Shown here: positions 6,299 through 30,476 of the stretch, one piece after another | Position numbering within the stretch: position 1 is the first letter of the stretch | Layout of the letters: each line of letters starts with the position of its first letter | Origin: Candidatus Krumholzibacteriota bacterium | GTDB lineage: Bacteria; Krumholzibacteriota; Krumholzibacteriia; Krumholzibacteriales; Krumholzibacteriaceae | NCBI GenBank assembly: GCA_016932415.1 | Contig: JAFGCX010000011.1 | Span: 62,001-126,000, forward strand | Direction of reading: 5' to 3' | DNA length: 64,000 bases | Translations under genes and position numbers: made by a program | Notes under the pieces: generated by a model | Seen by the model: only the letters and a program-made list of their open reading frames with translations | What the model was told of the DNA's origin: nothing | Database searches by the model: none

Positions 6299-6409
6299 AT
6301 CGACCTTTCTGGTCAGGGCATGGTAATACTGTCAGCCTAATATGTAATGGCAAGGCATGTGCCAGCAGTTTGATTTGAAAAATAACGAGTTACAACGATT
6401 TTCAGGGCT

Positions 6410-6439: not shown

Positions 6440-6459
6440 TAAAAGCGTACACCGGATGG

Positions 6460-6975
6460 TCATCGCCAGCTCTTAAATATAAAGATCCCGAGACAGACCA
6501 GCCCCAGGGCGAACTTTACAAAATAGGCTAGCAACTTGCCCAGAAAAGCAAAAAATCCTGTCCTCAGAGCCTGATCAAGGGAGTTGTAATAGATATATTC
6601 GCATATCACCGCACCCGCGAAGGCCCCGATCAGAGCAAATACCACGCTTCCCACTACAGGTATCACCGCCGTCCCGCCTATCGCTCCGGCTATCCCACCC
6701 AGAAAAGCGCCGAGGACTCCCCATTTCGTCGCCCCCTTACCGGCCACGACAACGACCCCGAGAGTCGCTTCGATTATCTCACCCACCACCAGCAGAGCGG
6801 CCATGACGATCAACGATACCCACCCGATCGATGATATTCCCGCCACCAGTGAGAAAATCACGATAGATACGAACATCGCCCATCCGCCTGGAAGGCCGAC
6901 GAAAATCAGAAGATTGAGGATAAAGAGAAATATATACAGCAGGACCAGCCCGCCGCTCTGAAGTACAGCTCCCAT
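6460..6975 (-). CDS. DUF456 family membrane protein
   Basis: A 171-residue, very hydrophobic protein with about five membrane segments, rich in small residues (GVLGAFLGGIAGAIGGTAVI at about 85-104 and GSVVFALIGAFAGAVICEYI after it). The glycine-rich pair of helices and the VVGEIIEATLG motif are characteristic of DUF456, a family of unknown function. It lies 48 bases downstream of secF on the same strand and probably belongs to the secD-secF transcript. No specific link to protein export is known. The ATG at 6975 has no strong ribosome-binding site in front of it, so the exact start is less certain than the family. Confidence 0.8.
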   Translation of the reverse strand: MGAVLQSGGLVLLYIFLFILNLLIFVGLPGGWAMFVSIVIFSLVAGISSIGWVSLIVMAALLVVGEIIEATLGVVVVAGKGATKWGVLGAFLGGIAGAIGGTAVIPVVGSVVFALIGAFAGAVICEYIYYNSLDQALRTGFFAFLGKLLAYFVKFALGLVCLGIFIFKSWR

Positions 6976-7023
6976 TCGGACGCATCCTCACTGTAAGGTC
7001 AAGCCGCCAGATCACAGGTGATG

Positions 7024-8193
7024 TCAGACTCTGGCTTTCATACGAGCCGTTATCCTGTTCTGCCATTCTATCAGGACGGGGCTGGCAACGAAGATCGACG
7101 AATATGTTCCCACCACAATACCTACGAGCAGGGCGAAAGCGAAATCATGGATCACTTCCCCTCCGTAAAAATAGAGGAAAAGCACGACTATCAGAGTAGT
7201 AAGTGATGTTATGATCGTTCGCCCGAGAGATTCGTTGATAGAGATATTTATCATCTTCTCGTACGATTCGCGCCTTCTCAAGCTGAAATTCTCCCTGATC
7301 CTGTCGAAGACCACGATCGTGTCGTTCAGGGAATATCCGACGATAGTCATCAGCGCCGCCACGATCACAAGCGATATATCTTTTCCCAGAAGAGAGAATA
7401 TACCGAGCGTGATGATAACGTCATGAGCAAGAGCGATTATCGCGCCAATGGCGAATTTGAATTCGAACCTCCAGCTGATATATACGAGGATACCGAACAT
7501 CGAGATGATGATAGCCGCCCATGCCCGGTTTTTAAGCTCTTCTCCGATCTTCGGTCCGACCGTCTCGGTACGCCTGATCTCGATCTCCCTTTCAGGGAAT
7601 CTTTCAAGGATAGCAGATTTGAGAGCTTCGGCCGCCTTTGATTCGATACCCAGATACGGGAGGCTGAAAGCGATCCTGTCCTCCGACTCTTTTGTCACTT
7701 CGACAAAACCGACGCCGTTCGCCCTGACGCCGTCCTTAAGCGCTTCCATTTCAGGGATCGTAGCCGCTTCGACGACGATGAGGTTACCGCCCTCGTAGTC
7801 CCGGGAAAAATCAGGTGGCATCTCTTTGGCGGACACTACAGCCCATCCCGCCTCCGGGGCGGTCATTACAAGAGCTTCGAGGAGTTTTTCCGCCGCCATC
7901 TCAGTCTCGCTTATTTTCGCGATCGTTATCAGGTATTCGTTCCGTTCGCCGAACTCCTGGATGTCCCCATCACCGTATCCCGCTTCTTCCACCACAGCCC
8001 TGAGATCGGAAACAGGCACCGCCTCATCAAACCTGAGCTGTATCAGGGTCCCCCCCTCGAAATCGATGCTCAGATCGGGGCCCCCTTTGATAACGAGAGA
8101 GACGAGGCCCGCCAGGATAAGAACAAGAGAGATGATGAAAGCCTTGTTCCTGAAATCCACAAAATTAACGTGTGTTTCGCCAAAAAACTGCAT
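7024..8193 (-). CDS. secF: Protein translocase subunit SecF
   Basis: SecF works with SecD as the proton-driven partner of the SecYEG channel, pulling exported proteins across the inner membrane. The 389-residue sequence has a first membrane helix at about 17-36, then the signature DLSIDFEGGTLIQLRF, a periplasmic P4-like domain (about 55-220), and five more helices. These carry the conserved acidic motifs AHDVIITLGIFSLLGKD and GYSLNDTIVVFDRIREN. Length and order match the family. The ATG at 8193 follows GAGGAG with a 5-base A-rich spacer. secD ends 24 bases upstream, so both share one transcript, as usual. Confidence 0.97.
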   Translation of the reverse strand: MQFFGETHVNFVDFRNKAFIISLVLILAGLVSLVIKGGPDLSIDFEGGTLIQLRFDEAVPVSDLRAVVEEAGYGDGDIQEFGERNEYLITIAKISETEMAAEKLLEALVMTAPEAGWAVVSAKEMPPDFSRDYEGGNLIVVEAATIPEMEALKDGVRANGVGFVEVTKESEDRIAFSLPYLGIESKAAEALKSAILERFPEREIEIRRTETVGPKIGEELKNRAWAAIIISMFGILVYISWRFEFKFAIGAIIALAHDVIITLGIFSLLGKDISLVIVAALMTIVGYSLNDTIVVFDRIRENFSLRRRESYEKMINISINESLGRTIITSLTTLIVVLFLYFYGGEVIHDFAFALLVGIVVGTYSSIFVASPVLIEWQNRITARMKARV

Positions 8194-8217
8194 TTTTTCT
8201 CCTCTTCAGGTAGCTCT

Positions 8218-9951
8218 CTAGATGCTGAGCTTTTTCATCTTTCCGTTCCTGGTCCACATATCGAATAAAAGCCGGCTGAATATCAGCGCGGAGAACATAC
8301 TTCCAATTATACCTATGCTGAGCGTAGTCGCGAATCCCTTGATCGGCCCCGTACCAAACTGCCACAATACGACGGCTGTGATCAGGGTCGTGAGGTTCGC
8401 GTCTACAATAGTCGTAAAGGCCCTGTCATAGCCGGCATCTATCGCCGAACGTACCGTCTTTTCTTTCCTCAGTTCCTCGCGGATCCTTTCAAAGATCAGC
8501 ACATTCGCGTCAATTGCCATTCCTATCGTAAGGATGATCCCGGCGATCCCTGGCAGCGTGAGGGCAGCTCCAAGATAGGCCAGGAGCCCGAACAGTATCA
8601 GAAGGTTGAAGATCAGAGCGAGGGAGGCGATCAGCCCGGATAATTTATAGTATACGATCATAAACAATACGACCAGCGCCAACCCGAGAAGCGCCGCGCG
8701 AAGTCCCATCATGATCGAGTCGGATCCGAGGCTCGGGCCTACTGTTCTTTCTTCCCTCGGAATCAGATCGGCAGGGAGCGCTCCCGCCCTGAGGACGACG
8801 GAGAGATCCCTTGCTTCAACGTCGGTGAAGGTCCCCTCTATGACTCCGCGTCCGTCAGGGATCTTCGATCTTATCACGGGGTATGATTTTATTTTTCCAT
8901 CAAGGATTATCGCGGTGAACCTGTTAATATTCTTCCCCGTGAATCTCGACAGCTCTCTAGCTCCGGCCCGATTAAACTGGAACCTGATCAGGAGCCTGTT
9001 GGGGCTGTTCGGATCGGATGCCGGTACGGCGTTCTGCAGGTTCTTCCCCGAGACCATCTCGTCACGGGCTACCAGGAAAAGGAATTTGCCTCTTCCTCCT
9101 TCGGGAAGATCGGCCCATTCATCAAGCCAGAGGAAATCTGAATCCTCGGGGATCACTTTCTGCGCTTCAGCGCTCGCGAGTAATTTTCTTACCCTTGGCA
9201 CGTTACTTTCATGGACGACAAGCCAGTCCTTGTAGAAAGTCATAAGAAGGGAAGAGAACGGTTTGTCGCTTTCCGCCGCCTGAAGCGGTATCTCCGGGAG
9301 GATATCCGTCTGGGGAATCGGAAGGCCGAGCGAATCTACCGCAAAGGAATCAGGTCCCGCCTCTATTTCCCGGGTCATTCCGGCATCGTCCCCCGCTTTG
9401 AGCGGATCCGCGCCTATCGAAGTCTGCACCGGATCTTCCTGCTGCTCCGATCCCGAATCGGGCATATCCTTCAGGACCTCGTCGAGCCGCCTTACTATAT
9501 CAGCGACAAGAGTCCTCTGACGCACCAGCCTCCACTCGAGCATCGCTGTCTGACCGATAAGTCTTCTCGCCCTGGCGGGATCCTGGAGCCCCGGCAACTG
9601 GACGATTATCCTTTTAGATCCCTCTCTTTTAATATCCGGTTCGGAGACACCGAACTGATCGACGCGGTTTCTTATTACTTCCAACGCCCTGTCGACGACA
9701 TCGACCCTTTCATCATCGCTGAGTTTCGAGTCATCGACTTCGAGGACCAGGTGCATTCCTCCACTCAGGTCCAGCCCGCGCTTGATCGTCTTACTCTCAA
9801 GCTTGTCATATTCTTCGGGCTTCTCGATCGCCATCTGCTGCCTCTCTTCCGGACTCATCATCACGAGTCGGAAGGTCGGCAACAGGAACCATAGAGCACC
9901 CATAAGGACTATAAGTACCAGAATTGTCTTGTATCTCAGACTCTTGCTCAC
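8218..9951 (-). CDS. secD: Protein translocase subunit SecD
   Basis: Partner of SecF in the Sec holotranslocon. An N-terminal helix (KTILVLIVLMGALWFLLP), then KRGLDLSGGMHLVLEVD, the periplasmic P1 domain, and five C-terminal helices with the GIILTIGMAIDANVLIFERI and DANLTTLITA motifs are all present. The P1 region contains an acidic, low-complexity insertion (roughly residues 160-215), longer than I expect in enterobacterial SecD. I place the start at GTG 9951 because family members begin just before SLRYKTILVLIV and a GAGG lies 4 bases upstream. An in-frame GTG at 10032 would add 27 mostly basic residues. No yajC gene precedes it. A strong promoter lies at 10062-10089. Confidence 0.93.
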   Translation of the reverse strand: MSKSLRYKTILVLIVLMGALWFLLPTFRLVMMSPEERQQMAIEKPEEYDKLESKTIKRGLDLSGGMHLVLEVDDSKLSDDERVDVVDRALEVIRNRVDQFGVSEPDIKREGSKRIIVQLPGLQDPARARRLIGQTAMLEWRLVRQRTLVADIVRRLDEVLKDMPDSGSEQQEDPVQTSIGADPLKAGDDAGMTREIEAGPDSFAVDSLGLPIPQTDILPEIPLQAAESDKPFSSLLMTFYKDWLVVHESNVPRVRKLLASAEAQKVIPEDSDFLWLDEWADLPEGGRGKFLFLVARDEMVSGKNLQNAVPASDPNSPNRLLIRFQFNRAGARELSRFTGKNINRFTAIILDGKIKSYPVIRSKIPDGRGVIEGTFTDVEARDLSVVLRAGALPADLIPREERTVGPSLGSDSIMMGLRAALLGLALVVLFMIVYYKLSGLIASLALIFNLLILFGLLAYLGAALTLPGIAGIILTIGMAIDANVLIFERIREELRKEKTVRSAIDAGYDRAFTTIVDANLTTLITAVVLWQFGTGPIKGFATTLSIGIIGSMFSALIFSRLLFDMWTRNGKMKKLSI

Positions 9952-13157: not shown

Positions 13158-13215
13158 AGAGGTGTTTAAAAATAAGCCGATATATGCGCCGCCTCGCGCG
13201 AGAAAGGCCCTCACG

Positions 13216-14727
13216 ATGAAACGTCTGTTTATGCTTTTTATAATAATCGTCCTGTCATTGCCGCCTGTTCGCGCCAGATCGATCGAGATCGAGCGAAGAA
13301 CAGACGACGATGATCACCACGGGGAAAGAAAAAGCCTTGATCTGGCGATAAACGGCTACGGTATCAGTTTCGGCAACTCGAAACGGATGAAGGGGATCAG
13401 GCTGAATTTCAGGGATTCGTATGTCGATGAGGTGACCGGAATAAACCTTACGCTGTGGAAACCGGGGGACAATCCCGACGCGACGATCCGAGGCCTCGCG
13501 GCAGGCCTGTACGGACCTTCCGCGTGCGACCTGGAGGCTGTCTCGATAGGACTGATCTCGATAGAGGCTGAATGCTCGATCTCCGGAATATCGATAGGAG
13601 GATTTTCCACTGTCAGCGGTGGCCCGATAAACGGCATTTCGATAAGCGGTCTCGCTACCGTGGCAAAAGAGGATGTGAACGGGATCACCGTCAGCGGGCT
13701 CTCTACCGTGACCGGCGGAAATCTCACGGGGATAAGTGTGGGTGGTCTGGCCAACGTCGTTGACGGAAATCTGGACGGGATCTCTCTCGGCGGCCTGGCA
13801 AATGTCGTCGACGGTAATATCACGGGGATATCTGCCGGCGGCCTCGCAAATGTCTGCGACGGAAACAGCTCCGGGATAACCCTCGGCGGATTCGCCAACG
13901 TCACTGAATCGAATATAGATGGGATCGCTGTGGGAGGGCTTTCCAACGTGAGCGGAGGAAACACTTCGGGGATAACGATCGGTGGGCTGGCGAACGTCGC
14001 GGGAGGGTCCGTCTCGGGGATATCGATCGGCGGACTGGCTAATGTCGCCGGTAATGAATCGGCAGGGATCACTATCGGCGGGCTGGCAAATGTGTGCGGA
14101 TCGACCCAGAGCGGGCTGAGCGTCGCCGGGCTGGCAAATGTCGCCGGAGGGAAACTTGAGGGGATCGCGCTATCCGGGATAGCCAATGTCGCGGGAGACG
14201 GCCTGAACGGGATCTCGGTAAGCGGGCTTTTTACCGGCTCCGAGGAAAATATCACCGGGATCCATCTCTCCGGCGGAGCTTTAGTGACCGACTCTGATTT
14301 CTTCGGGATCGGCCTGGGCGTAATAGGTGGATTCACGACCGAATCGAGCGATTCGGACGATGAATATTTCGGATCCGATATCGAACTTTTCGGATTCAGA
14401 GCGAGGAACGCCGGTCTCCTGGTGATCCACGGCATCGACATAGATATCGACGAAAGGCTGATCGGCCTCGGCATGGGGGGGATCGACATCCGCGCGGGAG
14501 AAATATCCGGCTGCGCCATTTCGGGGATCTTCACACGGGCTGAACGCCTTAGCGGGTTTTCGGCAAGCTGCGTGAATATGGTCGAGGGGCCACAGACAGG
14601 GCTCACCATCGGGCTGGTCAACTTTGCCGAAAAGCTCCAGGGCTTTCAGATAGGCCTTCTCAATATCGCCAAAAACAACCCCGGCGGATTCAGGATACTT
14701 CCCCTGATCAACGCGCATTTCGAATGA
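13216..14727 (+). CDS. LA_2272-type surface repeat protein
   Basis: A 503-residue protein with a signal peptide (MKRLFMLFIIIVLSLPPVRA). Its core (13585-14304) consists of fifteen tandem 16-residue repeats of the type GISIGGLANVAGGSVS, in exact register with no insertion or deletion. The C-terminal part (about residues 400-503) has looser copies ending in GFQIGLLNIAKNN and LPLINAHF, which is the mark of LA_2272-family surface repeat proteins. The repeat should fold as a beta-solenoid or barrel-like structure at the cell surface; function is unknown. ATG 13216 is chosen over the GTG at 13162 because it starts the signal peptide and has GAAAGG 9 bases upstream. It is transcribed alone, divergently from the hybrid kinase, with a convergent neighbour 25 bases downstream. 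Confidence 0.8.
   Translation: MKRLFMLFIIIVLSLPPVRARSIEIERRTDDDDHHGERKSLDLAINGYGISFGNSKRMKGIRLNFRDSYVDEVTGINLTLWKPGDNPDATIRGLAAGLYGPSACDLEAVSIGLISIEAECSISGISIGGFSTVSGGPINGISISGLATVAKEDVNGITVSGLSTVTGGNLTGISVGGLANVVDGNLDGISLGGLANVVDGNITGISAGGLANVCDGNSSGITLGGFANVTESNIDGIAVGGLSNVSGGNTSGITIGGLANVAGGSVSGISIGGLANVAGNESAGITIGGLANVCGSTQSGLSVAGLANVAGGKLEGIALSGIANVAGDGLNGISVSGLFTGSEENITGIHLSGGALVTDSDFFGIGLGVIGGFTTESSDSDDEYFGSDIELFGFRARNAGLLVIHGIDIDIDERLIGLGMGGIDIRAGEISGCAISGIFTRAERLSGFSASCVNMVEGPQTGLTIGLVNFAEKLQGFQIGLLNIAKNNPGGFRILPLINAHFE
13585..14304 (+). repeat. Fifteen in-register 48-bp coding repeats
   Basis: Each unit encodes 16 residues with the pattern G-I-x-hydrophobic-x-G-L-A-N-V-x-x-(G/D)-(N/G)-x-x. 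Unit 1 begins at 13585 (GISIGGFSTV) and unit 15 at 14257 (GIHLSGGALV), the offset being exactly 14 x 48. Codons differ between units, so the array is old or under selection at protein level rather than recently expanded. Confidence 0.85.
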
Positions 14728-14752: not shown

Positions 14753-17700
14753 TCACCGGAGCAGCACCATCTTCTTCGTGCTGCTGAACTCTTCCGCGTC
14801 GATCCGGTAGAAATATATCCCGCTCGCCGCTTTCGCCCCGGCGTTGTTCGTTCCCTTCCAGTCTACCGAATGCGATCCCGCCACCCATTCCCTGTCGGTG
14901 AGGGTCTTCACAAGCTGCCCCGAGGCGTTGTAGACTGACAGATTCACATGCCCCGGCGCCGGCAGGTCGAACCTGATCCGGGTCGAAGGGTTGAACGGGT
15001 TGGGGTAGTTCTGGGCGAGGGCGTAGACCACAGGCACCGGGTCGGTACCGGTGTTCCAGTCTCCGTTCTCGAAAAAATCCTGCGTCAGTTTAAAAAGCTC
15101 CTGTCTCGCAATAGGCCCGGGCGACCCTTCGTCCCTCACATACATCAGACTGTGCCCTATCCACGAAGTGCGGGCGGTACCGCCGAAAGAGTTTATATAC
15201 TGATTCCTTACACCGATATAATAATCGGTCGACTCGTACGAAGGAAGCTGCAGCGTCTTTACTCCCGTCCCTGTCGTGGTGAGCACGTCGAAATTGTTGA
15301 TCACCGGACATCCGCCAAGGGCGTGGTAGGAGAGCCCCGCGTATATATCAAGTCCCGTGACAAGGGGGGCGAAAATCCCTCCGCCCGCGTTACCCCCTGT
15401 CATCTGATAGTAACTGTAATTGACATGCGTGACACCGCAGGCCGTCGCCATTAAATCGATGGCGATCTGAGCCCCTGAATTATCGAGATCGGAGGCTACG
15501 CCATCTCCCAGGATAAAGAGGTTCGCCTTCTCTCCCTCAGGTTTGAAGTCCAGCCAGTCGTAGAGAAGCTGCGCGTCGTTACTCTTGTCACTGTGGTCCG
15601 TCCCCTCGGTTATCGTCCCAGTGCTGAGATTGCCTGAATCCCAGATTATCTCTTCGTACGCCTGCAAGAGGTGATCCAGCGTGGCGCGGCTTCCCGGTCC
15701 GTTACCGACGAGCGACGAGGGACTGTTGACGTCGTAGCGGTCGGGAGTGTCATTGATAAAACTGAAGGTGTTGTCCCAGTAGACCTGGGCTGTGCCCTCG
15801 AACGTCCCTCTTCCGTCGTAATCGTCCACATAGAGGATCTCACTGCCGAGGGTCGGCAGGCACGTGAACTCGAAATGATAGCTGCCTCCCGGGTGGGGAT
15901 ATTCTCCAGCCGTTTCCGCCTCCGCGGGAAGGGTCGAACTCTTACCGGCGTTATCGAACGCCTTGAAGTAATACTCGATCATATACCCGCGGGTAAAAAG
16001 GGAATCGTTAAGATCAAACATATACTTATCAGGAATCAGGTGTCCGCTCCGGGTCCGGGCCGTATCGCCCTGTATCACCGTCCATGTCCCGTCATCGCTT
16101 ATATATGTCCCGTATGTCCCCTCGAGGGATGGACCGGAAAGAGCCGGCTTCGGCGCTCCCGGATCCCCTATGTAAGAGCACTTAACGTGCATGAAGACCC
16201 TTGCTCCATTTCCGTCTTCCTCGATGCCGCCTCCCATCGGGGAAGTGCAATCGACGACGATCGAATCCCCCGGATCTACGACGGGATCGTCGTTTGACCT
16301 GAGATCGTTCGCAGCGTCAGCCCTGACCCAGTTCTCTATATCGCCCCCATCCGACGGAAAATTATCCTGGAAGAGATCGAGGGCGCGGTAATACCACTGC
16401 GGGCCGCTCGAATCGTAGCGCAGAATGGCTATATTGTTGAAATAGGGGGATGTCGTATGCTCCGCGCAGTTTCCGTAAAGGCCGAACCAGATGTCGCACA
16501 TATCGACGACCTTCAATCTAACCTGTATCGAATCAGTCGAGACAAGATCGGAGATATCGTTGACGCTGAAGTAATAATCGTCCGACAATCCTCCGTACCC
16601 GAATCCCCGGTCGCGCCAATCCTGCGGACAGCCGCCCGAGATTCCCCGTACTGACCAGTCATAAAAGACAAGGTTGGAATATGGGAGATCGCGGTATACT
16701 GTAAATTTAAGCTTCACCCCTCCCAGGTCGGGAAGGACTGACGGCGCGATCGCCGCATCCTGCTCGCTGTCGCCACCTGTCGAATACCTTGTCATATCGA
16801 TAACGGGGGATATGGCAGATTCGTCCTGGCAGACTTCAATTCCATCCGTTGTCTCGGTGCAGAAAGGGGTGACATAGAGCCCGGGGCATTCGACGCTCGG
16901 CATGCAGGTCTGGTTAAAAAAGACCATCTGATAGCCGATCTTCTCATTGCAGGGATCCTTGTCGCAGAGACCGGCGATAAGGCTTGAATAGCAACCGAAA
17001 GGTTCCCTGACATCGGCTTGCCAGAAACCGGTCGCCCTGTCCCCGACCTCCGCCGATTCGAAATCCTCGTAGTCGATTATCCCGAACCCGTCACTGATCG
17101 TGATGCTGTCGATGATCGCGGCGCCATCGGTATTGAAGAGGCCATCCTCGTCGCTCCACGCTCCGTCAGAGAGGAACCGGAACCTTATCTTCGTGCGGGA
17201 ACCGGCGAATATGAAGCTCTCTGTTGCGACGGTATCGATCTCACCGGCGAAAGATGCTAATTCCGTCCAGGGATTTAGAGAATGCCCGTTGTATTCGACC
17301 ACAGTCGAGTCGAATCCCGCCTCCGAGTCGAACCTTCCGTGAAACGATATTGTGACAGTTCCATGAAACTCGAAAGGTTCGGAGACAAGCCTCTGGTCCC
17401 AGCCGTTTCCATATCCCGGCGCGGAATTCCAAGAACAGAGATACTGATCGCTACCCGGCCTCGCACCGCACCATATCGACTTTGAACCTTCTATAGGCGA
17501 AAGCATTCCGTTCACTCCCGGACCGATTCCGGCAAAATCATCGACATGGAAAAAAGTGTCGACCTGCGCCGTATGGTCGAACCGGGAAAACCCGAGCCAG
17601 TCGCCATCGGAAAAATCATACTTGACTATCAGATATGTATCTACCGATGCTGGCGCCATCAGGATCCTGTCGGCTCCTGAGATCCCGGCGCTTACCTTCT

Positions 17701-17818
17701 CAGGCGCCCACTCCTGCATGAATTCAGGTTGTTTTTTATCTGTATCCCTGGCGAGAACGATTCCGTTTACGGTGAGAAGGATCAGGACAGTCGACAAAAA
17801 CAAGACTGGTGATTTCAT
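14753..17818 (-). CDS. Large secreted protein with FlgD-like C-terminal sorting tail
   Basis: A 1021-residue protein with a signal peptide (MKSPVLFLSTVLILLTVNG). The middle contains beta-rich segments resembling the galactose-binding/MAM-like modules of immune-inhibitor-A-type proteins (ISFHGRFDSEAGFDSTVVEY, FIFAGSRTKIRFRFLSDGAW), followed by several cysteine-rich stretches. The last 85 residues are a FlgD Ig-like fold starting LAQNYPNPFNPSTRIRFDLP and ending SGIYFYRIDA...KKMVLLR. In FCB bacteria this tail acts as a secretion or surface-anchoring signal (Por-secretion-tail-like). No catalytic motif was recognised. ATG 17818 is chosen because it begins the signal peptide and has GGGGGGAA directly upstream; an upstream in-frame ATG at 17836 lacks this. 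A promoter lies at 17996-18024. Confidence 0.8.
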   Translation of the reverse strand: MKSPVLFLSTVLILLTVNGIVLARDTDKKQPEFMQEWAPEKVSAGISGADRILMAPASVDTYLIVKYDFSDGDWLGFSRFDHTAQVDTFFHVDDFAGIGPGVNGMLSPIEGSKSIWCGARPGSDQYLCSWNSAPGYGNGWDQRLVSEPFEFHGTVTISFHGRFDSEAGFDSTVVEYNGHSLNPWTELASFAGEIDTVATESFIFAGSRTKIRFRFLSDGAWSDEDGLFNTDGAAIIDSITISDGFGIIDYEDFESAEVGDRATGFWQADVREPFGCYSSLIAGLCDKDPCNEKIGYQMVFFNQTCMPSVECPGLYVTPFCTETTDGIEVCQDESAISPVIDMTRYSTGGDSEQDAAIAPSVLPDLGGVKLKFTVYRDLPYSNLVFYDWSVRGISGGCPQDWRDRGFGYGGLSDDYYFSVNDISDLVSTDSIQVRLKVVDMCDIWFGLYGNCAEHTTSPYFNNIAILRYDSSGPQWYYRALDLFQDNFPSDGGDIENWVRADAANDLRSNDDPVVDPGDSIVVDCTSPMGGGIEEDGNGARVFMHVKCSYIGDPGAPKPALSGPSLEGTYGTYISDDGTWTVIQGDTARTRSGHLIPDKYMFDLNDSLFTRGYMIEYYFKAFDNAGKSSTLPAEAETAGEYPHPGGSYHFEFTCLPTLGSEILYVDDYDGRGTFEGTAQVYWDNTFSFINDTPDRYDVNSPSSLVGNGPGSRATLDHLLQAYEEIIWDSGNLSTGTITEGTDHSDKSNDAQLLYDWLDFKPEGEKANLFILGDGVASDLDNSGAQIAIDLMATACGVTHVNYSYYQMTGGNAGGGIFAPLVTGLDIYAGLSYHALGGCPVINNFDVLTTTGTGVKTLQLPSYESTDYYIGVRNQYINSFGGTARTSWIGHSLMYVRDEGSPGPIARQELFKLTQDFFENGDWNTGTDPVPVVYALAQNYPNPFNPSTRIRFDLPAPGHVNLSVYNASGQLVKTLTDREWVAGSHSVDWKGTNNAGAKAASGIYFYRIDAEEFSSTKKMVLLR

Positions 17819-17995
17819 TTTATTCCCCCCGGTCAAATGAAAACAGATGTCGCCGGAAAACTCCGGAAACAGGTCCGTACCGCCATCCCATGATGCGGGC
17901 AGAAGCGATATTTTTTTATTGTCCGTTTTTTCCGCATCCGCCGCGCGGCCTGCCCCTGGTGGCGGCGTGAGGATCTTAACCTGCCACTTAAGGTC

Positions 17996-18024
17996 AATCT
18001 ATCACATATTTCGGGTTTTTTCAA
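17996..18024 (-). promoter_or_regulatory. Promoter of the FlgD-tail protein gene
   Basis: On the minus strand TTGAAA (18019-18024) and TAGATT (17996-18001) are 17 bases apart. The predicted leader before ATG 17818 is about 170 bases. Confidence 0.55.
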
Positions 18025-18074
18025 TAATTTCCTGCCCTGAAACCACTTCTCGCGTGATGAGTCGCCGTTTAGGC

Positions 18075-18104
18075 TTGACATTGAAGCAAATCAGGAGTCT
18101 TATA
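18075..18104 (+). promoter_or_regulatory. Possible upstream promoter of the DUF4912-GH57 operon
   Basis: A perfect TTGACA (18075-18080) is followed by CTTATA at 18099-18104 (18-base spacer); TATAGT at 18101 would require 20 bases. It is weaker than the second TTGACA-containing promoter 45 bases downstream, so the pair may act in tandem. Confidence 0.4.
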
Positions 18105-18119
18105 GTAGTTACGTAGCAT

Positions 18120-18148
18120 TTGACATGATTATATCCGGAATATATATT
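18120..18148 (+). promoter_or_regulatory. Main promoter of the DUF4912-GH57 operon
   Basis: A perfect TTGACA (18120-18125) and TATATT (18143-18148) are separated by 17 bases. Transcription should start near 18155, giving a leader of about 88 bases that begins with a GC-rich hairpin. Confidence 0.75.
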
Positions 18149-18163
18149 ACGCGCCAAATGAAA

Positions 18164-18194
18164 GGCCGCGGCCGCCCCGAGCGGCCCCGAGGCC
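18164..18194 (+). promoter_or_regulatory. GC-rich hairpin in the DUF4912 leader
   Basis: GGCCGC (18170-18175) and GCGGCC (18181-18186) form a perfect 6-bp stem with a 5-base loop. Outer GGCC copies (18164-18167 and 18191-18194) can extend it. There is no following T-run, so it is not a standard terminator. It starts about 10 bases after the predicted transcription start and could protect the RNA end or control translation. Confidence 0.4.
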
Positions 18195-18242
18195 GGAAGT
18201 CTGTAACATGCCGGATCAGCGGCATAAAGGGGTGTGGTCAAA

Positions 18243-19439
18243 ATGACACCTGACGAACTTAAAAACCTGCCCAAGGCCGGTCTTCTTGAACTGGCAAGGC
18301 AGAAGAAGATACCAGTCAAGACAAGGATGCTGAAAGTTGAGCTTATCGAGATAATCGGCGCTCACCTGTCTTCAGGTAAAAAACCGGCACTGAAAGCCAA
18401 AGCGAAAACAAAAACAGCAGCGAAAAAAGCGGTGAAAAAGAAACCGGCAGGAAAAAAACCTGCCGCTGGCAAGACCGCACCGGCCGCGACAGGAAGGGCG
18501 GCTTCGAAAAAACCTGCCACGAAGGCCAGGCCGCGGAAGAGACCTTCCCCGCAGAGCCCTGTCGTGAACGATGAACGGACCATCAGGCAGAAGGCGGTCG
18601 AGGAGAAATATCATCTGACCACGTCGCCGGTCTCTCTGCCCCCGGTCGATTCGATGGATATCCCTTACAGCTATAATATAACGAGGATCGTAGTGATGGT
18701 CCGCGACCCGAACTGGCTCTTCGCCTACTGGGAAGTGACCGGCGAGCGTTACCGCGAGCTGGAAAAGGAGTTCGGCGACAGGTGGTCCGACTGCAGGATC
18801 ATTCTGAGGGTCTATGACCGGTCGAAGGGCCGCGAGGATTCCTTTGATATAGATCCCGGCCATGACGCTTCTAACTGGTATATAAAGGTCTCGGCCAGCG
18901 GGATCTACCAGGTGGCGATTGGCCTTCTCGACCCCGATGGAAGATTCATCGAGATAGCGATCTCGAATATCGCCGAGACCCCGAGCGACTCGATCAGCGA
19001 CATCGTCGATGATAAATGGCTTGTCCCCGATGATATATACGACAGGATATTCTCCGCCTCGGGAGGGTACGAAAGACAGGATGGCTCGGCAGAGCTGCGG
19101 GCCCTTTTCGAGCAGAAGATGATAGAGGAGATGGGGTCGGAAGCGGTCTCGAGTTTCAGCAGCGGCGAACTTCAGAAATTCAAGAAGCTGAGAGGCTTCA
19201 GGCTCTGGGTCGCTACCGAGCTGATACTTTATGGAGCTACTGAACCTGACGCGCGCGTGACGATACAGGGAAAAGAGATCAAGACCCGCCCGGACGGGAC
19301 TTTTTCGGCCCGTTTCGCGCTGCCTGACGGAGCGATCGACATCCCTGTCACCGCCGAATCATCTGACCGGATCGAGGAACGGACGATCGAGACAGCGGTC
19401 AGGAAAAAATCAAAGCAGAGAGATCCGGTGATAAGATGA
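18243..19439 (+). CDS. DUF4912 protein with SAP/Rho-N-like N-terminus and basic linker
   Basis: A 398-residue protein in three parts. Residues 1-40 (TPDELKNLPKAGLLELARQK, then KVELIEIIGAHL) resemble the helix-extended-helix of SAP or Rho N-terminal domains, which bind nucleic acids. Residues about 45-105 are an almost pure Lys/Ala/Pro/Gly linker, histone-H1-like. The rest is a DUF4912 domain with the family marks DPNWLFAYWEVTGERY and DPGHDASNWYIKV, followed by a region ending in a beta-sandwich-like segment (LYGATEPDARVTIQGKEIK). DUF4912 function is unknown, but the gene regularly sits beside GH57 alpha-glucan enzymes, as here: its stop overlaps the next gene by 4 bases. ATG 18243 is preferred over GTG 18234 because AAAGGGG lies at the correct distance. 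Confidence 0.8.
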   Translation: MTPDELKNLPKAGLLELARQKKIPVKTRMLKVELIEIIGAHLSSGKKPALKAKAKTKTAAKKAVKKKPAGKKPAAGKTAPAATGRAASKKPATKARPRKRPSPQSPVVNDERTIRQKAVEEKYHLTTSPVSLPPVDSMDIPYSYNITRIVVMVRDPNWLFAYWEVTGERYRELEKEFGDRWSDCRIILRVYDRSKGREDSFDIDPGHDASNWYIKVSASGIYQVAIGLLDPDGRFIEIAISNIAETPSDSISDIVDDKWLVPDDIYDRIFSASGGYERQDGSAELRALFEQKMIEEMGSEAVSSFSSGELQKFKKLRGFRLWVATELILYGATEPDARVTIQGKEIKTRPDGTFSARFALPDGAIDIPVTAESSDRIEERTIETAVRKKSKQRDPVIR

Positions 19440-21025
19440 CAGACCCCGGAAAAGGTTATCTCGCGCTTGTCCTTCACGCCCATCTTCCATTCGTGAGGCA
19501 TCCCGAACATGACGATTTCCTCGAGGAAGACTGGTTCTTCGAGGCATTGACGGAGACATATATCCCCCTGATAGAGATCTTCGACAGGCTCGTCGACGAG
19601 GGGATCCCGTTCAGGATAACGATGTCGCTTACTCCACCGCTACTGTCGATGATGTCCGATCCGCTCCTGCAGCTGAGATATATCAGGCACCTGAACAAAC
19701 TGATCGATCTTGCCGGCAAGGAGATCGCCAGGACGAGGTGGACGCCCGACTATCACGAACTGGCGCTGATGTACCACTGGAAATTCTCCCGGGCCCGCCA
19801 GATATTCCTCGAGCAGTACGACAGCAGGCTGATAGAGGCTTTCAAAAAGCACCAGGACCTTGGCAACCTCGAGATAATCACCTGTGGCGCGACGCACGGA
19901 TTCATGCCACTGATCCACAACCGCAAGGCGGCCAGGGCCCAGATACAGATCGCCGCCAACCACTACGAAAAACATTTCGGACGAAGGCCGAGAGGGATCT
20001 GGCTGGCCGAGTGCGGTTACACCCCAGGCGTCGACGAGCTGTTGAAAGAAGCGGGGATAAAATATTTCTTTACCGATACACACGGGATACTTTTCGGGGC
20101 TCCACGGCCGCGATACGGAGTCTTCGCTCCGGTATACTGCCCTTCGACCGCCGTTGCCGCCTTCGGCCGCGACAAGGAATCATCGAAACAGGTCTGGAGC
20201 GCGAAAGAAGGATACCCGGGCGATTTTGAGTACAGGGATTTCTATAGGGATATAGGGTTCGATCTCGATTATGACTATATCAGGCCATACCTCCACCCCG
20301 ACGGAAACAGGATACACCTGGGGATCAAATATCACAGGATCACCGGCGCGACAGACCAGAAGGAACCTTACCGCCCGACCGCTGCCAGAGAGAAAGCGGC
20401 CGTACACGCCGGCAATTTCATGTTCAACCGTGAAAAACAGATCGAACACCTCAACGCCCTGCTCGGAATGAAGCCGCTCATAGTGTCCCCTTATGACGCG
20501 GAACTTTTCGGGCACTGGTGGTATGAAGGTCCCGAATGGATCGATTTCCTTCTGCGCAAGCTCCACTTCGACCAGGATACGATAATCCCGATCACTCCAT
20601 CGGAGTATCTGGAAAGGCACCCGAAGCTGCAGGCCGTCCAACCGACGATGTCCTCGTGGGGACACAAAGGATATAACGAGGTGTGGCTTGAAGGCAGCAA
20701 CGACTGGATCTATCCACATCTGCATATGATGTCGGACCGGATGGTCGAACTGACCGCGCGCTTTCCCGAATCGGACGGCGTTCTGAGACGGGCCCTGAAC
20801 CAGGCCGCTCGCGAACTTCTGCTGGCCCAGAGCAGCGACTGGGCTTTCATCATGAAGACCGGAACGATGGTCGAATACGCGCACAAAAGGACCAAAGACG
20901 CGATCGGACGTTTCGACAAGCTGTATAATGATATTCTCTCGTCGAAAATAAACGACCAGTGGCTCAAGGAAGTGGAAAGCAGGGACAACCTCTTTCCTGA
21001 TCTCGATTATCGCGTATACTCCTGA
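19436..21025 (+). CDS. GH57 1,4-alpha-glucan branching enzyme
   Basis: A 529-residue member of glycoside hydrolase family 57 of the branching-enzyme type (DUF1957). The N-terminal LVLHAHLPFVRHPE is the first conserved region. The predicted nucleophile is Glu192 in GIWLAECGY and the acid/base is Asp354 in SPYDAELFGHWWYEGPEW; these correspond to Glu183 and Asp354 of the characterised Thermococcus enzyme TK1436. The helical C-terminal part contains SSDWAFIMKTGTMVEYAHKR, also typical. It should form alpha-1,6 branches in glycogen-like polymers in the cytoplasm; there is no signal peptide. It overlaps the DUF4912 gene by 4 bases and is followed after 14 bases by a second GH57 protein, so all three act together. 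Some relatives have weak or no branching activity, so the exact reaction is probable rather than certain. Confidence 0.88.
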   Translation: MTDPGKGYLALVLHAHLPFVRHPEHDDFLEEDWFFEALTETYIPLIEIFDRLVDEGIPFRITMSLTPPLLSMMSDPLLQLRYIRHLNKLIDLAGKEIARTRWTPDYHELALMYHWKFSRARQIFLEQYDSRLIEAFKKHQDLGNLEIITCGATHGFMPLIHNRKAARAQIQIAANHYEKHFGRRPRGIWLAECGYTPGVDELLKEAGIKYFFTDTHGILFGAPRPRYGVFAPVYCPSTAVAAFGRDKESSKQVWSAKEGYPGDFEYRDFYRDIGFDLDYDYIRPYLHPDGNRIHLGIKYHRITGATDQKEPYRPTAAREKAAVHAGNFMFNREKQIEHLNALLGMKPLIVSPYDAELFGHWWYEGPEWIDFLLRKLHFDQDTIIPITPSEYLERHPKLQAVQPTMSSWGHKGYNEVWLEGSNDWIYPHLHMMSDRMVELTARFPESDGVLRRALNQAARELLLAQSSDWAFIMKTGTMVEYAHKRTKDAIGRFDKLYNDILSSKINDQWLKEVESRDNLFPDLDYRVYS

Positions 21026-21039
21026 CATCCGGTGGGATC

Positions 21040-23559
21040 ATGGACGAGACCGGGAAAAAAAGACACCTTATAATACACGGGCATTTTTACCAGCCTCCGC
21101 GTGAGAATCCGTGGACCCAGCGAATCGACCGCCAGGAATCTGCCTCTCCCTATCACGACTGGAACGAACGGATCAGCCGCGAATGCTATCGTCCTAACGC
21201 CAGATCAAGACGCCTTGACGGTTACGGAAGGGTCACCCGCCTGGTAAATAATTATGAGGCGATCAGTTTCAATTTCGGCCCCACTCTTCTGTCATGGATC
21301 GAGGATAAAGACCCGGCCCTGATCGATCAGCTGGCCGAAGCGGACAGGGCGAGCGCCCGGCGGCTCGGGGGAAAAGGGAACGCCGTCGCGCAGGTGTACA
21401 ACCATATTATCATGCCTCTGGCGAACATCCAGGATCAGAAGACCCAGATCAGGTGGGGCGTGTCAGACTTCGAAAAGCGTTTCGAACGAAGCCCCGAGGG
21501 GATCTGGCTTGCCGAAACGGCGATCAATGACCTTTCTCTTGGACTTCTTATCGATTTCGGGTTCCGGTTCGCCATCCTCTCTCCATTCCAGGCGGAGAAA
21601 TTCCGTCCCCTCGGAAAAAGCGGAGGTTGGAAAACCGTTGATGACGGATCTATTCCGACAGGCCGGGCGTACAGATCATACACCAGGACAGGGAAAGGAA
21701 AACGCAGGACGGACCGGTTCATCGACATCTTCTTTTACGACGCAAGACTTTCGACCGATATAAGTTTCAATCACCTTCTTTCCAACGGAGACCGGCTTGC
21801 CGAAGCGATATCCGATTCATTCGAAAGGTGCGGCGGCGACCTTGTCACGATCGCCACAGACGGCGAGATATACGGCCACCACGAACCGTTCGGCGATATG
21901 GCCCTCGCCTATCTGATAGACGAGGGAGCCCGCAGGTATGATATCTCTTTAACCAACTTCAGCGCCTACCTCGACTCTCACGAGACGCAGTTCGAGGTCG
22001 TTTTAAAGGCAGGGAAAAACGGCGAGGGGACCGCATGGTCCTGTTCTCACGGAGTAGGAAGGTGGAAGGAAGATTGCGGTTGCAGCACCGGCGGATTGCC
22101 GGGCTGGAATCAGAAATGGAGAACCCCGCTCAGGGAAGGCCTCGACACTCTTCGAGACCGGCTCTCGGCTATCTTTGAGAAGAAAGGCGCCCTGCTTCTG
22201 ACTGATCCGTGGCAGGCGCGCGACGATTACATCTCTGTCATGACCCCTCGAAGTGTCGAGAAGGTCAGCTCTTTTATCAGGGAAAAGTCACGTGTCGATC
22301 TTTCCGATGAGGACCTCTCCCTCGCCTGCAGGCTTCTCGAGGCGCAGAGAAACGCTCTTCTGATGTTTACCTCATGCGGATGGTTCTTCAACGACATTTC
22401 CGGCATCGAGACGGTCCAGCTTCTCAAATATGCCGCGCGGGCTATCGAGCTCGGCGGATGCGAGGATGCCGCAGATATAGAGAATGAGTTTCTACTCGCT
22501 CTCGAGAAGGCCAGGAGCAATACGGCCCCGGCGGGGACCGGCAGGGATCTTTACCTTGAGGCCAAAAGTTCATCATCGGTCAGACCCTCGTTTCTTGCCG
22601 GCCAGTATGTACTTGCTTCCTCTCTTTCTTCGACGGAGGCATCTCCGGAGATCTTCGGTTATAACTTTAATATCTCCGATGATACCGTGATGGAGGTTTC
22701 AGGGATCACGCTGAACATCGGCAGGGTTTCGATGACGTCACCGTATACTCTCGAAAAAAACGATTTCAAATATATACTTGTCGTTGGCACTCCGGCCCGC
22801 GTGGCCTGCATGCTTAACGAATGCGCCGGCAGTGAGGAATTCGAATCGATGAAGTCCCATTTTTCAGCCCTCCCTGCCGACACTGATTATTTCGATATAG
22901 TCGCCGATATGGCCGATTACTTCGAAGGGAATATCTTCGTTATGCGCGACCTTTTCAGCGAAGACAGGGAAAAGATCCTGGGGCTTCTGGCAAAAAAACA
23001 GATATTGGAAGTAAAAAGCATATTCGAGAAACTCTATTTCGAGAACCGCGAGATCCTCAGGCTCTTCAAGGAGACTTCCCTCACCCCGCCGGAAAGCCTC
23101 CTTGCTCCGGCGAGGGCAGTACTTGCCGAACGTCTTTCCGGCGAGATCGACAGGTGGACCGAGAGTTTCGACACGGCCGGACTCGATGGGATAAAAAAGG
23201 TGATCTCCGAATCGAACTACTACGGCATAGAACTAGACAAGAGCAGGACGCTGAAGATCTTTACCGGATTTTTCCTCGGCATGCTTTCCCCGATGCGCGA
23301 ATCTCTCTCAAATAAGATCTCCGATCAACTCTTCACTTTCGCCGAATACTGCCGCGAGATCGATCTCGAACTGCCCCATCACGATATCCAGAACGAGATC
23401 TTCACTATCCTCGAGACCCGGGTCGGAGACGCCGCTGACAGGATCGCCACTGGCGCGGCCGGCTCGGGCGCCGATCTTTCAGACGTGGTGAGTTTTCTCA
23501 GGCTCGCCGAAAGATTCAATTTCAATATCGATTCGTGGCAGGAACGTCTTCCGAAATAA
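21040..23559 (+). CDS. GH57-type protein with DUF3536 domain
   Basis: An 839-residue protein. The first half is a GH57 catalytic barrel (IIHGHFYQPPRENPW at about residues 10-24, the predicted nucleophile Glu in EGIWLAETAIND and a candidate acid/base Asp in TIATDGEIYGHHEPFGD). The second half (about 330-839) contains the DUF3536 region, beginning near GTAWSCSHGVGRWKEDCGC and GWNQKWRTPLREGLDTLRD. The family is annotated as alpha-amylase/alpha-mannosidase-like, but no member with a proven activity is known to me. There is no signal peptide, so it is cytosolic. It lies 14 bases after the branching enzyme. Together with DUF4912 this suggests a storage-glucan modification module. Length and domain order are usual; the substrate is inferred from context. 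Confidence 0.83.
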   Translation: MDETGKKRHLIIHGHFYQPPRENPWTQRIDRQESASPYHDWNERISRECYRPNARSRRLDGYGRVTRLVNNYEAISFNFGPTLLSWIEDKDPALIDQLAEADRASARRLGGKGNAVAQVYNHIIMPLANIQDQKTQIRWGVSDFEKRFERSPEGIWLAETAINDLSLGLLIDFGFRFAILSPFQAEKFRPLGKSGGWKTVDDGSIPTGRAYRSYTRTGKGKRRTDRFIDIFFYDARLSTDISFNHLLSNGDRLAEAISDSFERCGGDLVTIATDGEIYGHHEPFGDMALAYLIDEGARRYDISLTNFSAYLDSHETQFEVVLKAGKNGEGTAWSCSHGVGRWKEDCGCSTGGLPGWNQKWRTPLREGLDTLRDRLSAIFEKKGALLLTDPWQARDDYISVMTPRSVEKVSSFIREKSRVDLSDEDLSLACRLLEAQRNALLMFTSCGWFFNDISGIETVQLLKYAARAIELGGCEDAADIENEFLLALEKARSNTAPAGTGRDLYLEAKSSSSVRPSFLAGQYVLASSLSSTEASPEIFGYNFNISDDTVMEVSGITLNIGRVSMTSPYTLEKNDFKYILVVGTPARVACMLNECAGSEEFESMKSHFSALPADTDYFDIVADMADYFEGNIFVMRDLFSEDREKILGLLAKKQILEVKSIFEKLYFENREILRLFKETSLTPPESLLAPARAVLAERLSGEIDRWTESFDTAGLDGIKKVISESNYYGIELDKSRTLKIFTGFFLGMLSPMRESLSNKISDQLFTFAEYCREIDLELPHHDIQNEIFTILETRVGDAADRIATGAAGSGADLSDVVSFLRLAERFNFNIDSWQERLPK

Positions 23560-23571
23560 CCATCTCCGTAG

Positions 23572-27656
<4,085 letters not shown>

Positions 27657-28010: not shown

Positions 28011-30476
28011 ATGAATCACAGGGGCATCGCGTTCCTTACAATCCTGCTTGTTCTTTCCTTTTCTTCCACACCTGCCGGCGCCTTATGGCATCAGGGGGGG
28101 AATCTGATCTGCGACGAAGTCTCTACCCAACGCTATATTCAGTCGGCTCCCGACGGAGCGGGAAATATCTATCTCGTTTGGGAAGATTACCGCTCGGGGA
28201 GCGGGCCCGACATCTACGCGCAGATGATCGACAATCGCGGCAACGAACTGTGGACTTCAGGGGGGATCGCCATCGCCACAGGGACGCCGAACCAGTGGGA
28301 ACCGCTCATAACAGGTGACGGGGCTGGCGGAGCGATCATCGTATGGGAAGATTTCGAGACAGGTCCCGTTTATGGCATCAAAGCCCAGAAAATCGATGCC
28401 GATGGAACTCCGCAGTGGACTGCCGGCGGGGTGACTCTCCTTAGCGGTTCATCGGGCTATACCGACCTTAAGCTCATCTCAGACCTGACAGGCGGTGTCA
28501 TCGTCGCGTGGTACAGCTCCGTATCGGGAAATTACGATATCTACGCGCAGAGGGCCGACTCGGACGGCACGGTGATGTGGGGAGCGAGCGGCACTTCTCC
28601 ATGCACCGAGACATCTATACAGCAACAGCCAGAACTCTGCCCCGACGGAACAGGCGGAGCGATCATCGCCTGGATGGACAGCCGCAACGGCAATCTCGAC
28701 GTATACGCGAGAAGGATCGGGCCTTCAGGTTCAATCTACTGGACATCGAACGGCGTGCCGATATGCACGCAGACCGCTTCACAGTCCGTCAATTCCGTGG
28801 TCGGGGATGGAGGCGGCGGGGCGATAATCATCTGGCAGGACTTAAGAAACGGAACGAGTGATATCTTCGCCCAGCGCGTCTCAAGTGGCGGAGTGGCGCA
28901 GTGGTCGTCTAACGGACTCCCTGTCTGCCTCGCCTCCGGGAATCAGAATAACCCTGGCGGAGTGTCTGACGGAAGCGGCGGCGCCGTAATCGCCTGGTCG
29001 GACGACCGGACGACCAATACAGATATCTACGCGCAGAGGATCGACCCTGACGGTACGGGGCTATGGACTTCGGACGGAGTAGCCGTATGCACTGAAAGGC
29101 ACATGCAAACCGGCCCGAAGCTCATCATTTCCGAGAACGGGAATATAATCATAGGATGGACAGATTGCAGGCTTATCGAATATACACATTACGCACAGAT
29201 GCTCGACCTTTCCGGCTCGGCGCATTGGGCGACGAACGGAGTCCACGCCGGGCACACCACATACAGGACATCGGCCTTCGACATGTCCCCAGACGGCGAA
29301 GGGGGAGTTATCTTTTCGTGGGATTCCTATTATTCAAGCACTTACGACTTAATGGCCCAGAGGGTCGAGCGCAATGGATACTGGGGATACCCCTCCCCCG
29401 TGATCGCCGACATCCGCGACATACCGGGAGATCAGGGGGGCTCGGTCGATCTCGCCTGGTACGCCAGCAGGCTCGATCCCTGGCCGGCAATGGCGATATC
29501 GCATTATACCGTCTGGAGGGCGATAAGCCACCCCGACGCGATCCTTCTTGCGAGCCGCGGAGCAACGATCATCGAATCGATATCGGAGATAGCCCCGCAG
29601 AAGGATCGGGACTTTTCCGCGGAAGAGTTGAGCAGATCAACATCTCTCCCCTCCCCGCCGGATATCATAAGAAGCGAAATGGCCGGCAGTACGACGATTT
29701 TCTGGAAGATGATCTCGATGATTGACGCGTACTACCTCGATTCCTATTCGGAGGTCGCAGCCACCCTCTTCGACTCTACCTCGGCGTCGGATGAGAACCA
29801 TTACTTCCAGGTGATCGCGCATTCCGGCGTCCCGTCGGAATTCTGGATCTCCGAAACAGACAGCGGGTACTCTGTCGATAACCTCGCGCCGGTAGTCCCC
29901 CTCGGCCTGGCCGGAGAACAGTCGTATTCTCCCGAAGGGATCGTACTCACCTGGGACCCCAATACCGAAACGGATCTCTCAGGATACAGGATATATAGAG
30001 GACTCACCGATGATTTCGAGCCGGGACCGGGAAACCTGGTGGCAAGCATCCCCGATACTGTATATATGGATGATGGCTGGTCATGGGAAGATGAATGGTT
30101 CTACAAGCTTGCCGCCGTCGATATACACGGGAACGAAAGCGGCTATGCCCTGCTCGCTCCTTCGGGGATAACCGGAGAAGATATCCCCGACGCCCCGCTG
30201 GCGACATTCCTCGCTCAGAACTACCCCAACCCCTTCAATCCGACGACGACCATCAGGTTCGGGTTGAAAAAAGCGGGGCATGTCTCGCTGAGGGTCTACG
30301 ACGCGGCAGGAAGGCTCGTCCGGGAGATGATAGACAGGGAGATGCCGGCAGGAGACCACGCTGAACCATGGGATGGCCTGGCTGATGACGGCAGTGTCGC
30401 CGCGAGCGGGATGTATTTCTACCGCCTTGTGACATCGTCATTTGCGGAAACAAGAAAAATGGTGATGCTGAGATGA
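28011..30476 (+). CDS. Secreted beta-propeller-like repeat protein with FlgD-like tail
   Basis: An 821-residue protein with a signal peptide (about 1-24, ending TPAGALW). Residues about 30-450 hold seven or eight repeats of roughly 50 residues with the pattern (I/V)YAQR-(I/V)D-x-DG-x-x-x-W-x-x-x-G-(V/I)-x-(V/I)-C and a GGAIIAW strand, for example QRIDPDGTGLWTSDGVAVC. This spacing suggests a beta-propeller blade. A fibronectin-III-like segment (about 630-700, VPLGLAGEQSYSPEGIVLTW) precedes the C-terminal FlgD Ig-like tail LAQNYPNPFNPTTTIRFGLK ... RKMVMLR. It should be exported and anchored or released at the surface; ligand unknown. ATG 28011 follows GGAAGGGGG. It has its own promoter and its neighbours are unrelated membrane proteins. 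Confidence 0.78.
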   Translation: MNHRGIAFLTILLVLSFSSTPAGALWHQGGNLICDEVSTQRYIQSAPDGAGNIYLVWEDYRSGSGPDIYAQMIDNRGNELWTSGGIAIATGTPNQWEPLITGDGAGGAIIVWEDFETGPVYGIKAQKIDADGTPQWTAGGVTLLSGSSGYTDLKLISDLTGGVIVAWYSSVSGNYDIYAQRADSDGTVMWGASGTSPCTETSIQQQPELCPDGTGGAIIAWMDSRNGNLDVYARRIGPSGSIYWTSNGVPICTQTASQSVNSVVGDGGGGAIIIWQDLRNGTSDIFAQRVSSGGVAQWSSNGLPVCLASGNQNNPGGVSDGSGGAVIAWSDDRTTNTDIYAQRIDPDGTGLWTSDGVAVCTERHMQTGPKLIISENGNIIIGWTDCRLIEYTHYAQMLDLSGSAHWATNGVHAGHTTYRTSAFDMSPDGEGGVIFSWDSYYSSTYDLMAQRVERNGYWGYPSPVIADIRDIPGDQGGSVDLAWYASRLDPWPAMAISHYTVWRAISHPDAILLASRGATIIESISEIAPQKDRDFSAEELSRSTSLPSPPDIIRSEMAGSTTIFWKMISMIDAYYLDSYSEVAATLFDSTSASDENHYFQVIAHSGVPSEFWISETDSGYSVDNLAPVVPLGLAGEQSYSPEGIVLTWDPNTETDLSGYRIYRGLTDDFEPGPGNLVASIPDTVYMDDGWSWEDEWFYKLAAVDIHGNESGYALLAPSGITGEDIPDAPLATFLAQNYPNPFNPTTTIRFGLKKAGHVSLRVYDAAGRLVREMIDREMPAGDHAEPWDGLADDGSVAASGMYFYRLVTSSFAETRKMVMLR

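What the first reader, a model, noticed from the sequence alone, without database searches (positions are those of the whole stretch)
18120..23559. Coupled DUF4912 - GH57 - GH57/DUF3536 operon led by a protein with a DNA/RNA-binding-like head
Seen: the DUF4912 protein has a SAP/Rho-N-like N-terminus and a 60-residue histone-H1-like Lys/Ala/Pro linker. Its gene overlaps the branching-enzyme gene by 4 bases, and a second GH57 protein follows after 14. Known: DUF4912 recurs beside GH57 enzymes but has no function. Inference: the protein could bridge nucleic acid and glucan, tether glycogen particles, or regulate the operon (which starts with a stable leader hairpin). This is the strongest candidate here for an undescribed system.
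Basis: partly seen in the sequence, partly recalled or inferred. Interest (0 to 1): 0.62.

Follow-up and report, generated by a model that had tools for sequence, protein, structure and literature searches.

The report
DUF4912 partner of glycogen branching enzyme
A protein of unknown function turns out to be the near-constant companion, across at least ten groups of bacteria, of one type of enzyme that puts branches into glycogen, and it often carries a DNA/RNA-binding-like head that might tie the glycogen-making machinery to the chromosome.

Summary
In detail: DUF4912 (ATG 18243), GH57 branching enzyme and GH57/DUF3536 genes are coupled (4-nt overlap, 14-nt gap), and the DUF4912 protein has a real Rho_N head plus a histone-H1-like K/A/P linker. 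Only the leader hairpin is unremarkable.

The pairing is far from chance. In 80 loci found by DUF4912 alone, the branching-enzyme gene lies within three genes downstream in 72 of 75 usable loci, over about 12 phyla. Among 149 Desulfotomaculum-type Bacillota genomes, 78 of 78 with the enzyme have DUF4912, and 15 carry two separate pairs. Among 149 Spirochaetota, 73 have both, 37 of them at separate places, so operon hitchhiking cannot explain it.

DUF4912 also leads a glgC-glgA-GH57 cluster and is fused to glycogen synthase (GlgA) in two genomes. All 85 partner enzymes read are AmyC-like, lacking the catalytic loop. The head is exchangeable: Rho_N plus basic linker, basic tail only, membrane helix, or none.

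Best reading: a dedicated accessory and anchoring subunit of loopless GH57 glycogen branching enzymes. Partnership in glycogen synthesis is well supported (about 0.85), direct binding likely (0.55), nucleoid/RNA tethering a hypothesis (0.35). No paper found describes this.

The parts
18120..18148 (+). promoter-like site TTGACA-17-TATATT upstream of the operon
   Evidence: scan, 11 of 12 matches; same site in the congener G024
18226..18232 (+). ribosome-binding site AAAGGGG, 10 nt before ATG 18243
   Evidence: sequence
18243..19439 (+). DUF4912 protein, 398 aa, proposed accessory/anchoring subunit of the branching enzyme
   Evidence: ORF, Pfam PF16258 3.5e-28
18243..18371 (+). N-terminal Rho_N/SAP-like helical head (residues 1-43)
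   Evidence: profile hits Rho, Pfam Rho_N in 21/25 heads, AF2 pLDDT 95-97
18375..18581 (+). disordered histone-H1-like Lys/Ala/Pro linker (residues 45-113)
   Evidence: AF2 low pLDDT, composition
18672..19010 (+). DUF4912 core, FN3-like beta sandwich (residues 144-256)
   Evidence: Pfam, AF2 pLDDT above 92 over most of it, VIA-align Z about 10 to FN3 domains
19218..19406 (+). C-terminal Ig-like beta domain (residues 326-388), weak Glucodextran_B similarity
   Evidence: AF2; Pfam 8.6e-5 here, 40 of 75 relatives match
19436..21025 (+). GH57 1,4-alpha-glucan branching enzyme, AmyC type without catalytic loop
   Evidence: Pfam GH57 + BE_C, T. maritima AmyC 2b5d E 1.6e-164, loop absent
21040..23559 (+). 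second GH57 protein with DUF3536
   Evidence: Pfam DUF3536 6.6e-81

Best explanation
The DUF4912 protein is a dedicated accessory subunit of the loopless (AmyC-type) GH57 glycogen branching enzyme. Its FN3-like DUF4912 core most likely binds the enzyme and/or the growing alpha-glucan and helps the enzyme branch rather than hydrolyse. Its exchangeable N-terminal head anchors the complex: to nucleic acid through Rho_N plus an H1-like linker here, to the membrane through a helix in Desulfotomaculia. SHOWN: near-obligate co-occurrence, adjacency over about 12 phyla, linkage and fusion to glycogen synthesis genes, the domain anatomy, and the exchange of heads. INFERRED: physical binding, activation, and nucleoid/RNA tethering by analogy with PhaF and AlgP.
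For: (1) Loci fetched by DUF4912 only: branching enzyme within three genes downstream in 72 of 75 loci, +1 on the same strand in 67 gene copies; in 42 of 68 measurable pairs the genes overlap or lie 30 nt or less apart. (2) Co-occurrence: own phylum 28 both / 2 / 3 / 47 neither (Fisher 6e-16); Spirochaetota 73/3/11/62, of which 37 unlinked; Bacillota sample 78/3/0/68 with 15 genomes holding two or more separate pairs. Fisher p-values ignore phylogeny. (3) Glycogen context: DUF4912-glgC-glgA-GH57 (L185), GH57/DUF3536-GlgA::DUF4912-GH57-glgP (L114), glgC-GlgA::DUF4912-GH57 (L112); DUF4912-[GH57::glycosyltransferase] beside a phosphorylase-like gene (L188, read from sequence). The own genome has GlgA and no GH13 branching enzyme over the curated cut-off. 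(4) All 85 partner enzymes read are loopless; the one own-phylum enzyme without any DUF4912 (G079) has a long loop. Loopless GH57 enzymes have low branching and high hydrolysis when assayed alone (PMC6616209, PMC10346327), which leaves room for a missing partner. (5) Rho_N head and basic tails recur in many phyla; a membrane helix replaces them in 23 Bacillota.
Against: No physical interaction, activation or localisation has been shown. FN3-like folds are generic and do not reveal a ligand. AmyC from T. maritima has some branching activity alone (PMC6616209). About 92% of GH57 branching enzymes are loopless (PMC10346327), so the loop correlation is weak evidence. Some Spirochaetota have divergent, loopless GH57 proteins without DUF4912, and one close enzyme (G184) has no DUF4912 found. 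Heads differ or are absent, so nucleic-acid tethering cannot be the core function.
Confidence: 0.6

Rival explanations
1. DUF4912 is purely a glucan-binding or acceptor-positioning subunit (CBM-like), and the N-terminal heads are dispensable low-complexity decoration.
For: Two beta-sandwich domains, the C-terminal one resembling glucodextranase domain B; fused to GlgA; headless forms exist (Elusimicrobia, L188).
Against: Rho_N is a folded, conserved domain found in many phyla, and membrane-helix heads in 23 Bacillota look like real anchors.
Confidence: 0.3
2. The DUF4912 protein is an RNA- or DNA-binding regulator of the operon, acting on the leader.
For: Rho_N head, basic linker, first gene of the operon.
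Against: Unlinked but co-occurring in 37 Spirochaetota genomes; heads replaced by membrane helices; fused to GlgA; leader hairpin not conserved or significant.
Confidence: 0.05
3. Operon hitchhiking: the genes travel together without functional relation.
For: Short tight operons are common, and the genes are tightly spaced here.
Against: Near-perfect co-occurrence including unlinked genomes and duplicated pairs.
Confidence: 0.02

Closest known systems
PhaF / PhaM / PhaH (polyhydroxyalkanoate granule proteins)
   Same: One end binds the storage granule, the other end is a DNA-binding part; PhaF and PhaM use a histone-like region, and PhaM also activates the synthase PhaC (PMC13052382).
   Different: Store is polyester, not glucan; homology not tested; DNA part is C-terminal there and N-terminal here; Rho_N head and FN3-like core are not described in those proteins.
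AlgP of Pseudomonas aeruginosa (polyphosphate granules)
   Same: Disordered K/P/A-rich (KPAA) histone-H1-like tail that binds DNA and spaces storage granules (PMC9239181).
   Different: Different store, different folded domain; homology not tested.
T. maritima AmyC and loopless GH57 glycogen branching enzymes
   Same: The window's enzyme is of this type (loop absent); T. maritima also has DUF4912 (control).
   Different: AmyC was studied without any DUF4912 partner (PMC6616209, PMC10346327); whether the T. maritima genes are adjacent was not tested.
Transcription terminator Rho, N-terminal Rho_N domain
   Same: Head of the DUF4912 protein matches it by profile.
   Different: No RNA-binding cold-shock domain and no ATPase follow; linked to a beta-sandwich instead.

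Membership tests
DUF4912 (PF16258) | score over Pfam gathering cut-off | tested here: met
   98.7 bits vs 29.4
Rho_N (PF07498) | own sequence over Pfam gathering cut-off | tested here: not met
   16.3 bits vs 24.9 for the window's head alone
Rho_N (PF07498) | profile similarity of the head family to Rho proteins and a short helical fold | tested here: met
   3l0o E 1.7e-7 and other Rho chains; 21 of 25 heads match Rho_N, best 8.2e-10; three helices pLDDT 95-97
Rho_N (PF07498) | binds nucleic acid | not testable with these tools
   needs EMSA or crosslinking
GH57 glycogen branching enzyme | GH57 plus BE_C domains and branching-enzyme Cys after the catalytic Glu | tested here: met
   Pfam; WLAECGY motif, aligned to AmyC
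GH57 glycogen branching enzyme, loop-bearing ('true') group | flexible catalytic loop as in T. kodakarensis TK1436 | tested here: not met
   loop absent: 33 residues against 44 in the same interval, alignment
PhaF/AlgP-type granule tether | histone-H1-like K/P/A-rich disordered tail | tested here: met
   composition and disorder; resemblance, not homology
PhaF/AlgP-type granule tether | homology to PhaF/AlgP; localisation to storage granule and nucleoid | not tested
   no comparison with PhaF/AlgP sequences was run; localisation needs microscopy
FN3/Ig-like glucan-binding module | fold plus glucan binding | tested here: inconclusive
   FN3-like fold, Z about 10, shared by many unrelated domains; binding not testable here

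The most novel reading that the evidence does not exclude
A widespread, undescribed glycogen-synthesis complex: loopless GH57 branching enzymes work with an obligate DUF4912 subunit that both shifts the enzyme from hydrolysis to branching and, through interchangeable heads, moors the glycogen particle to the nucleoid (Rho_N/H1-like) or membrane, a glucan counterpart of PhaF and AlgP.
Probability: 0.25. Interest if true: 0.82.

Novelty: new variant of a known kind. Interest (0 to 1): 0.62.

Why it matters
It gives a function class to a domain of unknown function found in many bacterial phyla. It also offers a testable answer to why most GH57 glycogen branching enzymes (about 92% lack the catalytic loop, PMC10346327) look like poor branching enzymes when studied alone: they may have been assayed without their partner. 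If the heads anchor glycogen, it would be a positioning system for bacterial glycogen; a recent review of bacterial organelle positioning (PMC13052382) does not mention glycogen at all.

Tried and rejected
Literature: 'DUF4912' occurs in one held paper only, a cotton transcriptome table; no paper found links it to GH57, glycogen or Rho_N. PDB by sequence: no hit for the DUF4912 protein or the DUF3536 protein. Rfam: none in 17800-23700. Leader hairpin: examined in 27 relatives, no consistent signal. Foldseek/VIA: core matched only generic FN3 domains; the list was filled by one domain, so head and C-terminal domain were not searched by fold. T. maritima gene order could not be fetched. A regular-expression test for Rho_N was too strict and was replaced by a profile; that profile includes many of the tested heads, so counts for seed members are circular, while the Spirochaetota hits apart from L129 (the locus of seed L074) are independent of it. 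The idea that DUF4912 replaces the loop was considered: consistent with the data but weak, as most GH57 branching enzymes are loopless anyway.

Full report
WHAT IS THERE. The window lies in a 3.1 Mb genome of the Krumholzibacteriota group, judged by the named relatives. A promoter-like site at 18120-18148 precedes three co-directional genes: a DUF4912 protein (ATG 18243 to 19439), a GH57 protein with BE_C domain (19436-21025) and a GH57/DUF3536 protein (21040-23559), followed by ligA (23620-25629). GTG 18234 is one base from the Shine-Dalgarno sequence; ATG 18243 is the better start.

ANATOMY. AlphaFold2 on 75 homologues gives four parts: a confident three-helix head (1-43), a disordered linker (about 45-113), a confident beta-sandwich with an inserted helix (about 147-250, the DUF4912 domain) and a second confident beta-sandwich (326-388). 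The head is a Rho_N domain: a profile of 25 heads finds Rho chains in the PDB (best E 1.7e-7), and 21 of 25 heads match Pfam Rho_N, although the window's head alone is below the Pfam cut-off. The linker reaches net +20 in 50 residues and up to 46/50 K/A/P/R/T/S. The core is FN3-like (Z about 10), a generic fold. The C-terminal domain weakly resembles glucodextranase domain B.

THE PARTNERSHIP. In the own phylum (80 genomes), DUF4912 and BE_C occur together in 28, DUF4912 alone in 2 (G011, whose match lies at a contig end; G045, a weak frame with stops), BE_C alone in 3, neither in 47. A scan of named genomes by DUF4912 peptides alone gave 80 loci from about 12 phyla. In 75 usable ones a gene of the window's GH57 cluster lies within three genes downstream in 72, 67 copies at +1 on the same strand; the cluster also holds some DUF3536 and LigA genes through chaining, and one search shows the +1 gene is the branching enzyme in nearly all loci. 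The gene pair overlaps or lies 30 nt or less apart in 42 of 68. In Spirochaetota (149 genomes) 73 have both, 3 DUF4912 only, 11 BE_C only, 62 neither; in 37 of the 73 the genes are not adjacent. In the phylum of Desulfotruncus (149 genomes) 78 have both, 3 DUF4912 only (two of them, G266 and G352, at or near contig ends), none BE_C only, 68 neither; 15 genomes carry two or more separate pairs. Fisher values (6e-16, 2e-26, 2e-39) ignore shared ancestry, but three phyla, unlinked co-occurrence and co-duplication make the functional link hard to escape.

GLYCOGEN. GlgA is present in the own genome, and no GH13 branching enzyme passes the curated cut-off there, so the GH57 enzyme is the only candidate found for branching. 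L185 (a spirochaete) carries DUF4912, glgC, glgA and the GH57 enzyme in a row; L114 carries GH57/DUF3536, a GlgA fused to DUF4912, the GH57 enzyme and a glgP homologue; L112 carries glgC, a GlgA fused to a degenerate DUF4912-like region, and the GH57 enzyme. In L188 a headless DUF4912 (161 aa) precedes a GH57 enzyme fused to a glycosyltransferase, beside a phosphorylase-like gene (names read from sequence, not from a family search). In Desulfotomaculia a glycogen-synthase-like glycosyltransferase and a nucleotidyltransferase/phosphoglucomutase protein flank the pair.

THE ENZYME TYPE. The window's enzyme resembles T. maritima AmyC (2b5d, E 1.6e-164) and lacks the catalytic loop; so do all 85 enzymes read (32-33 residues against 44/43 in loop-bearing archaeal enzymes). 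The only own-phylum enzyme found with no DUF4912 anywhere in a sizeable contig set (G079) has a long insertion there. Thermus composti, a control genome, has BE_C and no DUF4912. Published work finds loopless enzymes weakly branching and relatively hydrolytic when assayed alone (PMC6616209; PMC10346327). The inference that DUF4912 is the missing partner is mine.

THE HEADS. Rho_N with or without basic linker occurs in Krumholzibacteriota, Zixibacteria, Eisenbacteria, Spirochaetota, one Omnitrophota and several unnamed lineages; basic tails without Rho_N in most Omnitrophota, Firestonebacteria and some spirochaetes; a membrane helix in 23 Bacillota; no head in Elusimicrobia. So the head is an exchangeable add-on. 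Storage-granule proteins PhaF, PhaM and AlgP combine a granule-binding part with a histone-like DNA-binding part, and PhaM also activates its synthase (PMC13052382, PMC9239181). This makes nucleic-acid tethering of the glycogen machinery a reasonable but unproven reading; the membrane-helix versions would be the same idea with another anchor.

VERDICT. A real and widespread association, apparently undescribed in the held literature. Function class (glycogen branching) about 0.85; direct subunit about 0.55; nucleic-acid anchoring about 0.35. The leader hairpin claim is not supported, and operon regulation is unlikely.

Noticed in passing
L112 5027-8901, L114 about 4859-8772: GlgA fused at its C-terminus to a DUF4912 or DUF4912-like region, followed directly by the GH57 enzyme (family f5 of the phylum).
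   Followed up: partly
L188 2891-6179: Desulfotruncus: headless 161-aa DUF4912 followed by a 926-aa GH57 branching enzyme fused to a glycosyltransferase; similar 940-1050 aa frames in other second pairs.
   Followed up: partly
L006, L008, L032, L035: Some genomes of one genus have lost the Rho_N head but kept the basic linker.
   Followed up: no
L167-L172, L174-L176: Spirochaetota with divergent loopless GH57 proteins (EMGY/ELGY in place of ECGY); most lack DUF4912, three have a weak adjacent one.
   Followed up: partly
window 13162-14727: Protein with many imperfect repeats of the form GGLANVxxGNxxGI, probably a surface or secreted beta-structure.
   Followed up: no
window 14753-17836 and 28011-30476: Large secreted-looking proteins ending in a C-terminal sorting-type sequence (QNYPNPFNP...).
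   Followed up: no
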